This document shows positions 16,377-62,319 of a stretch of 64,000 bases of DNA, one piece after another (within the stretch, counting starts at the first letter, position 1; each line of letters begins with the position of its first letter). The stretch lies in the NCBI GenBank assembly GCA_944323695.1, contig CALUTI010000004.1, positions 62,001 through 126,000 of the forward strand, given 5' to 3'. The notes beneath the pieces are model-generated. The model searched no databases and had not been told where the DNA came from. It saw nothing but the letters and a program-made list of their open reading frames with translations. Source of the stretch: Candidatus Gastranaerophilales bacterium (lineage in GTDB: Bacteria; Cyanobacteriota; Vampirovibrionia; Gastranaerophilales; Gastranaerophilaceae). Both the position numbers and the translations under genes were made by a program.

Positions 16377-16404
16377 AAAAACACCGCAGATATACTCTGC
16401 GGTG
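16377..16404 (-). terminator. terminator of the prepilin-fibre gene
   Basis: On the minus strand a 9-bp stem CACCGCAGA/TCTGCGGTG (16404-16382) is followed by five T. A second palindrome, AACATCC-GGGG-GGATGTT (16407-16424), lies between it and the stop codon. Confidence 0.85.
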
Positions 16405-16424: not shown

Positions 16425-18002
16425 TTAAGATAATTGTTTTTCAAGCTTTTCAAGTCTTTCTCTTAATTCTTTATTCTCTTTTTGAAGCTGTTGAATTTCT
16501 TCATCATGCTTATCAAGTCTTGAAATAGCTGTTTTTATATCTTCAACAAGATTTTGTACAATTGCATCAAGCTCTTTTATGGCATTAACCATTGCGTAAA
16601 ACATATCATCACGACGAATTTTTAGATAGCCGTCATCACCTTTTATTACCGCGTTCGGGAATATTTTTTCCAAATCCTGCGCAATTACTCCTACTTGCGG
16701 TTTATTTTCTTTATCTTTTTTAAATGTATAATCATATACCTTTAATTCTCGCACTTGTGCCAATCCTGATTTGTTTTCTCCTTTGATATTTTTTAACCTG
16801 CGATCAGAGGTGATAGCGTCTGACGGAGTGCTATAATCGATAGTTTCTTTTGCCTTAAATGTCTTACCAACTATCAAATCACCGGGAATATAAACAACTG
16901 TACCACTATCACCCAGATAAATTACATGCTTACCATTTGTTGTTGCAGCAGAGGAAGTTTTAGGTCCAGAAGAAAAACCAATACATGTCTTGTAACTTCC
17001 AGATGTAACCGATTGACATGCTAAAGTACCAATCCCGATATTCGATACACCAGTCGTAACGCCTGTCAATGCACTTGTTCCTATTGCTATATTATTAGCC
17101 CCATAAATACCCTCCCCATTAAGGTTGAGTAATGCATATTTTCCTATTGCGATATTCTGGAAACCTGCTTCATTCTTATATAAAGCATTATATCCGATAG
17201 CAATATTAGCATCAGCTGTTGTATTACTATATAAAGAATTTTGTCCAATAGCTACATTCTCTTCCCCTGTAGTATTTGAAAATAATGCTTGATTCCCTAT
17301 AGCCGTATTAGCATCAGCTGTATTACTATATAAAGAATTTTGTCCAATAGCTACATTCTCTTCCCCTGTAGTATTTGAAAATAATGCTTGATTTCCTATA
17401 GCCGTATTACTGGCACCAGTTGTATTGCTTGAAAGTACACTGCGTCCTATTGCGGTATTGTTGCTTCCGGTAGTATTTACCCTTAATGTTTCATGTCCTA
17501 ATGCGGTATTATTACCACCCGTTGAAACTGACCTGAGCGAGTTTTGCCCAAATGCAGTATTGTATAAACCGGTGATAGAAGATTCACTATTCGATTTTGG
17601 AACATTAAAGAAAAAATTATTATTGCGTAAGCTTATTGCAGCACGTACTATAGAATTATTATCTTTAAATACAATAGGATATACATCATAAGGATATTTT
17701 ATTATTAAACGGCTATTCAAATCATCGCTTTGCTTTGCATTCTGACCGATCATTGCGGTCTGTGTATCTGCCAAACCAAAATATGCATCACTATTATTCG
17801 TTGCGTATCGCCATGGACTTGTTACGTCTGCTGATTTCCTTTTTGTCATCATCGGTGCAAATGCCGCCAGTACTATTGTCAATATCAGCATTACAACCAT
17901 CATTTCAGCCAAGGTAAAACCAATATGACCGAAATTATTTTTTCGTCCGTATAAAGAAGCTACAGCTTCCTCATTTGTCCCCATTTTTAACAATTTTTTC
18001 AA
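16425..18002 (-). CDS. prepilin fused to head-repeat fibre and S74 self-cleaving chaperone domain
   Basis: A 525-residue modular surface protein, numbered from a TTG start at 18002. The order is: a 28-residue leader ending in Gly, the type IV prepilin motif G-FTLAEMM with Glu at +5 and a hydrophobic helix (about 29-52); a linker; about twelve 16-17-residue repeats of the NTAIGxxALxSNTTG kind (about 145-345) resembling YadA-like or phage-fibre heads; a short connector; and an endosialidase-type (peptidase S74) intramolecular chaperone starting at SDRRLKN (Ser399), ending in a heptad coiled coil. S74 domains trimerise fibres and cleave themselves before that Ser. TTG is chosen because the upstream ATG (18029) lies inside the -10 box, while GGGGG stands 8 nt before the TTG. 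Confidence 0.85.
   Translation of the reverse strand: MKKLLKMGTNEEAVASLYGRKNNFGHIGFTLAEMMVVMLILTIVLAAFAPMMTKRKSADVTSPWRYATNNSDAYFGLADTQTAMIGQNAKQSDDLNSRLIIKYPYDVYPIVFKDNNSIVRAAISLRNNNFFFNVPKSNSESSITGLYNTAFGQNSLRSVSTGGNNTALGHETLRVNTTGSNNTAIGRSVLSSNTTGASNTAIGNQALFSNTTGEENVAIGQNSLYSNTADANTAIGNQALFSNTTGEENVAIGQNSLYSNTTADANIAIGYNALYKNEAGFQNIAIGKYALLNLNGEGIYGANNIAIGTSALTGVTTGVSNIGIGTLACQSVTSGSYKTCIGFSSGPKTSSAATTNGKHVIYLGDSGTVVYIPGDLIVGKTFKAKETIDYSTPSDAITSDRRLKNIKGENKSGLAQVRELKVYDYTFKKDKENKPQVGVIAQDLEKIFPNAVIKGDDGYLKIRRDDMFYAMVNAIKELDAIVQNLVEDIKTAISRLDKHDEEIQQLQKENKELRERLEKLEKQLS
17209..17409. repeat. near-identical tandem duplication inside the fibre gene
   Basis: Two copies, 102 bp (17209-17310) and 99 bp (17311-17409), differ only by a 3-base indel and one substitution. 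Each encodes two head repeats. This is a recent in-frame duplication that changes fibre length by two repeats. Confidence 0.9.
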
Positions 18003-18027
18003 AGTTATATCCCCCAGTCTTATTTTC

Positions 18028-18056
18028 ATTATACCATTTTATTCACAAAATTGCAA
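18028..18056 (-). promoter_or_regulatory. promoter of the prepilin-fibre gene
   Basis: TTGCAA (18056-18051) and a perfect TATAAT (18033-18028) with a 17-nt spacer on the minus strand. The -10 box covers the first ATG of the open frame, so that ATG cannot be in the mRNA. Confidence 0.8.
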
Positions 18057-18060
18057 AGCT

Positions 18061-37395: not shown

Positions 37396-38379
37396 ATGCT
37401 TGTAATAGCTGTATTGTTGTTGATTTTTATTATCGGACTTTGTATCGGAAGCTTCTTAAATGTAGTTATTTTAAGAGCATTGAGCAATGAATCCATTGTT
37501 TTTCCGGCATCAAAATGCCCCACATGCCAGCATAAGCTCTTATGGTGGCACAATATTCCGATATTATCTTACGTAATCCTGCGCGGCAAATGCGGGTTCT
37601 GCGGAGAAAAAATCAGCATTCAATATCCAATTGTAGAGCTTTTAACAGGCATAATGTTTACGCTGGTATTTTTAAAATTCGGCATAAGCTGGGACACTTT
37701 GTTTGCATGGGTTATCGGAAGCTTATTTATAGTAATTGCAGGCACCGATTGGAAGGAAAAAGTTGTATTTGACATACATACTTATTCATTAATCGGAGTA
37801 GGGATTTTATACGGAATACTTGTAACAGCGCTTGATTTATACCAGTTCCACAAAATAACGGGCGGATTTAATTTTACAACCGAATGGGTTGTAGGCAATC
37901 CTATATCAAGCACATTGCTCGGGATAATTTTAGGTTTTGTAATTATGGAAGTTGTTGCAAGAATAGGGTATTTAATAGCCGGCTCCAGAGCTTTCGGTGA
38001 AGGAGATTCATTTATTGCAGCAGGTCTGGGGGCTGTTTTCGGCTGGAGAATGATGCTTGTGGCGCTTGTTCTGGCCGTAATTATCCAGATAATTATTACT
38101 TTGCCACTGTATATTAAAAAAGAAATCGAAAACAGAAACTGGATGATTGTAATTTCACTGGGTGCATTTGTTATTTATACGATAGCATTTTTAATGGCAT
38201 TGCAGTTTGGCTGGCTTGCAAATACGATTGCGTATGCATTGAGCGCAATTGTGCTTGCAGTAATCGGTGTTTTTGCATGCAGAGAAATTTTAAGAGGAAT
38301 AAAAGAACCCGAAAACAGAACTTATCTGCCTTTTGGGCCTGCATTAATCCTTGCCGGGTTTGTGATTTTGTTGATATAA
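37396..38379 (+). CDS. pilD: prepilin peptidase (A24), leader peptidase/N-methyltransferase
   Basis: A 327-residue polytopic aspartyl protease that cleaves prepilin leaders after Gly and methylates the new N-terminus. The N-terminal cytoplasmic domain has two CxxC pairs (Cys41/44, Cys66/69) typical of the bifunctional form. Catalytic Asp residues are Asp118 (GTDWKEK) and Asp204 in GEGDSFI. It is longer than usual, with extra C-terminal helices. Its likely substrates in this window are the prepilins at 16425-18002 and 61495-62319. It forms a unit with the SigF-like gene. Confidence 0.93.
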   Translation: MLVIAVLLLIFIIGLCIGSFLNVVILRALSNESIVFPASKCPTCQHKLLWWHNIPILSYVILRGKCGFCGEKISIQYPIVELLTGIMFTLVFLKFGISWDTLFAWVIGSLFIVIAGTDWKEKVVFDIHTYSLIGVGILYGILVTALDLYQFHKITGGFNFTTEWVVGNPISSTLLGIILGFVIMEVVARIGYLIAGSRAFGEGDSFIAAGLGAVFGWRMMLVALVLAVIIQIIITLPLYIKKEIENRNWMIVISLGAFVIYTIAFLMALQFGWLANTIAYALSAIVLAVIGVFACREILRGIKEPENRTYLPFGPALILAGFVILLI

Positions 38380-61494: not shown

Positions 61495-62319
61495 CTACTT
61501 ACAATATCGCGAGAATAAATAATCCGCACTTTTTGCACATGTTCCGGTTGCACTGTCAAAGTAAAATCCATAGGCGAGGCAAGTACCGTGTTCCGGATCA
61601 GCATCTTCATAAAAACCACCTAAAGCCTCACAACCTTCTTCTGTCTTGCAGGTTGAAATTGTTTCAGGAGTACATTCCGGAGGATCCGGCAATAACGTAG
61701 CTGTCATATCCGCCAATACAGCATTTCCGCTCAATGAAAACAAAAAGAAATCTTCATTTACGATATTTGGTTTATTGTCACCGTTTAAATCAGTATAAAA
61801 GAACAAAGATTCCGTATCCGGCAACAGCAAATAAGACATACCGTCATTAGTCTGAAAAGCCGGCATTCCCATTGATAAATAAGTGTTGAAATCAAACGTT
61901 TGCGGTAAACCAGGGATATCATATTCTCCGGCAAATGCAGTTGACATATCAGAACTTGCGCTGTCTTTCAACATTTTAAAAACACTTTTATGCGACGCAA
62001 AAACACAATCCATATCTCTGCATTCCGTAAACATAGACAAATTTTTCACATCAAAGACCTGCTCTTTTGCCATCATTAATTTGTAGCCGTTGATTAATAT
62101 ATTTTTTGCCTTTTTGTATCTGGTTTCCAAAACTTTATCCTGATAATTACTTATCAGGGCCGGTATTGTAATTGCGGCAACAACACCAATTATACCGAGT
62201 GTTATCAACACCTCGGCAAGAGTAAAACCATATACCGGAACTTCATAATACCGTTCAAACCCTTGAGGAGTGTAGTTTTTTAGATGCCCCCCCGTTGTCT
62301 GAAAATTCAATTTTTTCAT
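61495..62319 (-). CDS. type IV prepilin-like protein
   Basis: A 274-residue prepilin. A 31-residue leader precedes G-FTLAEVLITLGIIGVVAAITI, with Glu at +5 and the usual hydrophobic helix. The following YKKAKNILINGYKLMMAKEQ is typical of pseudopilin-like proteins in this lineage. The C-terminal domain has several Cys (PPECTPETISTC, GTCLAYGF, YCK) that may form disulfides. AAGGAGG stands before the ATG. It is a likely substrate of the prepilin peptidase at 37396-38379. Confidence 0.88.
   Translation of the reverse strand: MKKLNFQTTGGHLKNYTPQGFERYYEVPVYGFTLAEVLITLGIIGVVAAITIPALISNYQDKVLETRYKKAKNILINGYKLMMAKEQVFDVKNLSMFTECRDMDCVFASHKSVFKMLKDSASSDMSTAFAGEYDIPGLPQTFDFNTYLSMGMPAFQTNDGMSYLLLPDTESLFFYTDLNGDNKPNIVNEDFFLFSLSGNAVLADMTATLLPDPPECTPETISTCKTEEGCEALGGFYEDADPEHGTCLAYGFYFDSATGTCAKSADYLFSRYCK

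What the first reader, a model, noticed from the sequence alone, without database searches (positions are those of the whole stretch)
16425..18002. Type IV prepilin fused to a head-repeat fibre and a self-cleaving S74 chaperone
Seen directly: a GFTLAE prepilin motif, about twelve NTAIGxxAL-type repeats, and an SDRRLKN-initiated endosialidase-type intramolecular chaperone ending in a coiled coil. Known: S74 domains drive trimerisation of phage tail spikes and release themselves by cleavage before the Ser; prepilin peptidase removes the leader and sets the protein in the membrane or pseudopilus. Inference: an inner-membrane or pilus-borne trimeric fibre that matures by two proteolytic steps at opposite ends, a bacterial surface appendage using phage-fibre folding logic.
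Basis: partly seen in the sequence, partly recalled or inferred. Interest (0 to 1): 0.78.

Follow-up and report, generated by a model that had tools for sequence, protein, structure and literature searches.

The report
Trimeric adhesin on a pilus anchor
A gut bacterium related to cyanobacteria makes a surface fibre that starts like a type IV pilus subunit, continues as a YadA-like sticky head, and ends in the chaperone that phage tail fibres use to join in threes and then cut themselves off; the combination had been listed once in a survey but its likely way of working had not been described.

Summary
Window 16425-18002(-) (TTG start; 534 aa if read from ATG 18029) encodes a Candidatus Gastranaerophilales protein with a prepilin motif, about twelve 17-residue beta-roll repeats, a Peptidase_S74 intramolecular chaperone and a C-terminal coiled coil. 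It is not a chance fusion: 63 of 63 aligned relatives score for both N_methyl and Peptidase_S74. Both maturation sites are invariant (F1, E5 and P22 of the mature pilin; the S74 Ser-Asp....Lys dyad), while the residues just before the Ser are the least conserved in the protein. 61 of 63 end in the RhxxhE trimerisation motif (2.8 expected by shuffling). The repeats belong to the YadA-head type, yet 0 of 60 same-family genomes have a YadA anchor. Best reading: a modular minor pilin presenting a trimeric, self-maturing YadA-like adhesin, probably on type IV pili (PilB, PilC, secretin, two PilT and, in the window, PilD are present). Trimerisation, cleavage and pilus location were not shown. The N_methyl-S74 architecture was listed in 2021 (PMC8179133), read there as a peptidase. 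New lead: in related lineages S74 prepilins come as clusters of three different paralogs that mostly lack the homotrimer motif, suggesting heterotrimeric tip complexes.

The parts
16425..18029 (-). Whole prepilin-YadA-type-head-S74 gene (534 aa from ATG 18029; preferred start TTG 18002, 525 aa)
   Evidence: Pfam; start choice
18028..18057 (-). Promoter-like site with extended -10 (TTGCAA-17-TATAAT, TG before); overlaps the upstream ATG
   Evidence: weak on its own: 11 found against 8.6 in shuffles
17919..18029 (-). Class III leader, ends in G(-1); residues 1-37 by ATG numbering
   Evidence: A or G at -1 in all 63 relatives
17841..17918 (-). Pilin alpha1N helix, mature residues 1-26, with F1, E5 and P22
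   Evidence: N_methyl hit; F38, E42, P59 invariant in 63/63; helix in both models
17565..17840 (-). Conserved linker and beta region (residues 64-155) in place of a usual pilin globular head
   Evidence: alignment; low-confidence model
16935..17564 (-). Beta-roll repeats (NTAIGxxALxxNTTGxx, 17-residue period; residues 156-365)
   Evidence: fold matches CbpF, BoaA, YadA; profile match to TAA heads
16809..16934 (-). Neck before the cleavage site (...VVYIPGDLIVGKTF...), residues 366-407
16605..16808 (-). Peptidase_S74 intramolecular chaperone; Ser408 codon 16806-16808, Lys413 codon 16791-16793
   Evidence: S408, D409, K413 invariant in 63/63; fold match MYRF ICA 7dc3, Z 7.4, rmsd 2.1 over 91
16428..16604 (-). 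C-terminal helix/coiled coil of the chaperone (residues 476-534)
16440..16457 (-). RhxxhE trimerisation motif R525-L-E-K-L-E530
   Evidence: 61/63 relatives, 2.8 expected by shuffling
16382..16404 (-). Intrinsic terminator just after the gene (9-bp stem, TTTTTC)
37396..38379 (+). Prepilin peptidase PilD, the only A24_N_bact hit in the genome
   Evidence: (E 7.7e-36), ORF

Best explanation
It is a modular minor pilin that carries a homotrimeric YadA-like adhesin. Proposed course: the prepilin is inserted in the inner membrane by its alpha1N helix (supported by sequence); PilD removes the leader at G37/F38 (inferred from the invariant motif and a PilD in the same genome); in the periplasm the C-terminal S74 domain and its RhxxhE coiled coil bring three chains together and register the beta-roll (inferred from homologues); once the trimer is folded, the Ser408-Lys413 dyad cuts before Ser408 and frees a chaperone of about 15 kDa, leaving a trimer of about 39-kDa chains with the neck at its free end (inferred from the conserved dyad and from K1F endosialidase and MYRF); the E5-bearing helices then let the trimer enter a type IVa pilus, most likely at its tip as for CofB/TcpB, so that retractable pili present a YadA-type adhesin to gut surfaces (inferred).
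For: Both domains in 63/63 relatives. F1, E5, P22 and S, D, K invariant. E5 is not needed just to stay in the membrane, so its invariance favours assembly into a filament. Conservation jumps from 0.15 in the residues before the Ser to 0.74 from the Ser on, and the P1 residue is free (14 kinds), as expected at a self-cleavage border. RhxxhE in 61/63, 2.8 expected. Heads: YadA_head Pfam hits in 39/63 relatives, profile matches to BpaC, YadA and CbpF, structural matches to CbpF Z 13.9, BoaA 10.8, YadA 10.7 and MYRF ICA 7.4. Machinery: PilB, PilC and secretin in one cluster, two PilT-family ATPases above the NCBIfam cut-off, PilD in the window. In related lineages S74 prepilins sit in compact operons with a further prepilin.
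Against: No experiment. Only monomer models, mean pLDDT 75, and the residues around the cleavage site (399-413) are under 50. The pilin part seems to lack the usual alpha1C helix and beta-sheet head (low confidence), so packing into a filament is uncertain, above all for a trimer of bulky chains. The gene is not near other pilus genes in the window; it sits between glyS and murG.
Confidence: 0.62

Rival explanations
1. Inner-membrane-anchored trimer that is never built into a filament: the prepilin helix is only an anchor, and the trimer works in the periplasm or passes the outer membrane through the secretin on its own.
For: The pilin globular head seems to be missing; no pilus genes next to the window gene; three bundled helices could be hard to fit in a pilus.
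Against: E5 and P22 invariant in 63/63; operons with a further prepilin in related families; trimeric minor pilins CofB and TcpB are known at pilus tips.
Confidence: 0.22
2. The S74 domain is a working peptidase displayed on pili, as suggested in PMC8179133.
For: Database family name; invariant Ser-Lys dyad; reading of the authors.
Against: S74 domains of K1F and MYRF cut only their own chain, before their first Ser, as trimers; here the domain lies after that Ser, so it would be shed by its own reaction; head and coiled coil are of fibre type.
Confidence: 0.04
3. The S74 domain trimerises the fibre but no longer cleaves; the chaperone stays as the distal tip.
For: No cleavage data; some phage chaperones have lost cleavage (own knowledge).
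Against: S, D and K kept in 63/63, and Ser and Lys in all members of the three-gene clusters that were read; sharp border of conservation at the Ser.
Confidence: 0.09
4. Decaying phage or prophage fibre gene fused by accident.
For: Repeats plus S74 resemble phage tail fibres; one paralog is frameshifted and one truncated.
Against: No phage genes around it; same locus glyS-gene-murG kept in L067 and L070, glyS side in L050; phage matches start only after the pilin part (query 104-159 onward); 63 relatives with both domains.
Confidence: 0.02

Closest known systems
Modular type IV pilins, architecture IPR012902-IPR030392 (Raynaud et al. 2021, PMC8179133)
   Same: Same pair of modules: N_methyl prepilin plus S74; idea of an effector module grafted on a pilin.
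   Different: There only listed and called a predicted peptidase; the main text does not name Gastranaerophilales or describe the YadA-type head, trimerisation or self-cleavage.
CofB/TcpB trimeric minor pilins of type IVb pili (PMC5207764, PMC10191384)
   Same: Minor pilin that makes a trimer at the pilus tip and presents a distal module.
   Different: No S74 chaperone, no YadA-type beta-roll; type IVb system. No homology found.
Trimeric autotransporter adhesins (YadA, BpaC) and the YadA-like trimeric adhesin CbpF
   Same: Left-handed beta-roll head; best structural match is CbpF.
   Different: Type Vc proteins are held by a C-terminal YadA anchor in the outer membrane; here the anchor is an N-terminal pilin helix and no YadA anchor was found in 60 genomes.
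K1F endosialidase chaperone (3gw6) and MYRF ICA domain (7dc3; PMC3742443)
   Same: S74 fold, Ser-Lys dyad five residues apart, following coiled coil, trimer-dependent self-cleavage known in those.
   Different: Phage tailspike and eukaryotic membrane transcription factor; here on a bacterial pilin.
PilV shufflon pilins of IncI plasmids (PMC9045228)
   Same: Minor pilin adhesin with variable C-terminal part.
   Different: Variation by a site-specific recombinase; no S74 known there (own knowledge).

Membership tests
Type IV (modular) pilin | Class III leader: G/A then F, E5, about 21 hydrophobic residues | tested here: met
   Pfam N_methyl 22.4 bits over cut-off 21.2; F1, E5, P22 invariant, A/G at -1 in 63/63
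Type IV (modular) pilin | Long alpha1 with alpha1C and a beta-sheet pilin head | tested here: inconclusive
   Only a 24-residue helix then strands in a low-confidence model (pTM 0.38), no PDB match
Type IV (modular) pilin | Cut by PilD and assembled in a filament | not testable with these tools
   PilD, PilB, PilC, secretin, PilT present
Peptidase_S74 intramolecular chaperone | Sequence profile and fold | tested here: met
   55.2 bits, cut-off 22; MYRF ICA Z 7.4, rmsd 2.1 over 91; K1F 3gw6 Z 6.1
Peptidase_S74 intramolecular chaperone | Catalytic Ser and Lys five residues apart | tested here: met
   S408 and K413 in 63/63; MYRF S578/K583
Peptidase_S74 intramolecular chaperone | Trimer-dependent self-cleavage | not testable with these tools
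   Needs expression; no multimer prediction available
Trimeric autotransporter adhesin (type Vc) | YadA-type beta-roll head | tested here: met
   39/63 relatives hit YadA_head, the window protein itself does not; profile and fold matches
Trimeric autotransporter adhesin (type Vc) | C-terminal YadA anchor in the outer membrane | tested here: not met
   No anchor in the protein; 0 of 60 same-family genomes have PF03895
Phage tail fibre / prophage | Phage structural genes around it | tested here: not met
   glyS, murG, ftsW, murD neighbours
CofB/TcpB tip pilin | Homotrimer at the pilus tip | not testable with these tools
   Analogy only; no CofB/TcpB homology seen in the PDB or family searches

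The most novel reading that the evidence does not exclude
In several related lineages S74 works as a heterotrimer clamp. S74 prepilins occur there as three different neighbouring genes (families f6, f7 and genus g8), in f6 abutting or overlapping and, in G045 and G048, followed by a fourth plain prepilin; only 13 of 47 keep RhxxhE against 66 of 67 of the other family members. The three minor pilins would be joined by their S74 domains into one tip complex, like GspI-J-K, and then all three chaperones would cut themselves off. All S74 trimers known to me are homotrimers.
Probability: 0.33. Interest if true: 0.82.

Novelty: new variant of a known kind. Interest (0 to 1): 0.6.

Why it matters
It shows how bacteria without trimeric autotransporters may still carry YadA-type trimeric adhesins: on a pilin anchor, folded by a phage-type chaperone that removes itself. 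It corrects the reading of a listed modular-pilin architecture from 'peptidase' to 'self-removing trimerisation chaperone', gives a ready test (a 15-kDa fragment that depends on one Ser), and offers an adhesin candidate for Gastranaerophilales, common uncultured gut bacteria. The three-gene clusters make it testable whether S74 can join three different chains, and so how a pilus tip complex gets its stoichiometry.

Tried and rejected
Phase variation by a homopolymer: the frameshifted paralog L187 lacks one base between repeats and S74, not in a homopolymer run; sequencing or assembly error not excluded. Silent-cassette (pilS-like) system: the truncated copy L186 2942-3889 resembles the L067 allele at 84% over 723 bp, but in the other genomes looked at the copies that truly lacked a prepilin lay at a contig end, so no system of silent cassettes is shown. 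RNA gene upstream of that copy: no Rfam hit. N-terminal region alone: no PDB match, model too weak to call. YadA_head in the own genome: none at E 0.001; the window's 17-residue repeats are outside that 14-residue model. S74 proteins of photosynthetic cyanobacteria: the two read in full, L243 and L244, show no prepilin motif; the other six stretches fetched (L245-L250) gave no hit with my S74 pattern and L237 was cut at its 5' end, so the limits of the fusion's spread are not settled. Plasmids: only partial, low-identity matches that start after the pilin part.

Full report
What is there. On the minus strand, 16425-18029 is one ORF of 534 aa. An intrinsic terminator follows the stop at 16404-16382, so the gene can be a unit of its own. 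Numbers below count from the ATG. Pfam finds N_methyl at 37-56 and Peptidase_S74 at 408-461, both above their cut-offs.

Where it is. Relatives by protein come almost all from Candidatus Gastranaerophilales MAGs. The window lies in a 1.73-Mb, 19-contig genome, 97.8% complete. The gene sits between glyS and murG. L067 and L070 keep this locus, and L050 shows the glyS side. Between these positional orthologs alpha1N and S74 are well kept (88% and 70% identity in S74) while the repeats are only 54% and 36% identical, the pattern expected of a binding part under change.

Is it a family. Of 63 aligned relatives all 63 carry both Pfam domains and 39 also YadA_head. Invariant columns include F38, E42 and P59, which are residues 1, 5 and 22 of the mature pilin, and S408, D409 and K413. 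MYRF keeps the same S, D and K with the same spacing; in endosialidases S and K form the dyad that cuts the chain once the trimer has folded (PMC3742443). Conservation is 0.15 in the stretch before the Ser and 0.74 from it on, with 14 kinds of residue at P1. The relatives were found by similarity to this protein or to the S74 profile, so some conservation is built in; the contrast across the Ser is not.

Signs of a trimer. Three independent ones: the S74 domain, the YadA-type head, and the RhxxhE motif about ten residues from the C-terminus in 61 of 63 (2.8 expected from shuffled tails). That RhxxhE directs short coiled coils to trimers is own knowledge. Repeat spacing over the family peaks at 14 (YadA type) and 17 (window type). 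The AlphaFold monomer (mean pLDDT 75, pTM 0.55) matches F. nucleatum CbpF (Z 13.9), BoaA (10.8), YadA (10.7), MYRF ICA (7.4, rmsd 2.1 over 91 residues) and K1F chaperone (6.1). The chaperone Z values are middling alone but agree with the sequence profile. No multimer prediction could be run.

The machine. The genome has one secretin, a PilB and a PilC in one cluster, two PilT-family ATPases far above cut-off, and a single PilD, which lies in this window at 37396-38379. Two retraction-type ATPases speak for type IVa pili. The genome also has 76 N_methyl hits; most are of another class. None of 60 same-family genomes has a YadA anchor, so the heads are not delivered by type Vc secretion.

Phage link. 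Phage matches cover the repeats and S74 (query 104-159 onward), not the pilin part. The simplest inference is that a fibre-like head plus chaperone was joined to a prepilin start; direction and donor are not shown.

Three-gene clusters. In families f6 and f7 and genus g8 S74 prepilins come in threes. In G045 and G048 the three reading frames overlap or abut and a fourth, plain prepilin follows. In g8 two are adjacent and the third lies on the other strand nearby. The Ser-Lys dyad is kept in every member read (the reading pattern itself asked for it), but RhxxhE is present in only 13 of 47, against 66 of 67 of the other members (Fisher p 3e-17, which overstates the case since the sequences are related). 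This suggests heterotypic triples there and homotrimers in the window's lineage. It is inference.

Prior knowledge. PMC8179133 lists IPR012902-IPR030392 among the 15 commonest modular-pilin architectures and reads S74 as a predicted peptidase. In the library held I found no other paper on this fusion; subscription journals are mostly absent. Trimeric tip pilins are known from CofB/TcpB.

Verdict. Observation confirmed; interpretation partly supported; new variant of a known kind. Shown: the architecture, its conservation, the fold matches of head and chaperone, the machinery. Inferred: trimer, both cleavages, pilus tip, adhesion.

Noticed in passing
own genome G000 (76 places); e.g. window 61495-62319 (-): About 76 prepilin-type genes in 1.73 Mb, most of one class with FTLAEVLITLGIIGVVAAMTIPTL at the start and different C-terminal parts; a very large pilin repertoire of unknown use.
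   Followed up: partly
L187 6617-8227 (-) (G000:C1): Second prepilin-S74 paralog, broken by a one-base frameshift between the repeats and the S74 domain; intact relatives exist. Decay or assembly error not told apart.
   Followed up: partly
L186 2942-3889 (-) (G000:C1): 5'-truncated copy of the repeats and S74 without prepilin start; 84% identical over 723 bp to the L067 allele at the glyS-murG locus, while it matches the window gene only in S74 (88.8% over 303 bp). Hints at recombination between copies.
   Followed up: partly
window 17197-17409: About 99-bp unit repeated twice at 94% inside the repeat region: recent duplication of repeats.
   Followed up: no
L251, L253, L254 (family f6), L252 and L268 (f7), L217 and L259-L266 (g8): Clusters of three different S74 prepilin genes; in L253 and L254 with a fourth plain prepilin.
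   Followed up: yes
L194 9260-11269 (-): The PilB carries an MshE-type cyclic di-GMP-binding domain (NF053729, 50.6 bits over cut-off 38), so pilus extension may answer to c-di-GMP.
   Followed up: no
G035 and other genomes: Up to 12 S74 genes in one genome, many at contig ends; these repeat genes seem to break assemblies, so counts are lower bounds.
   Followed up: no
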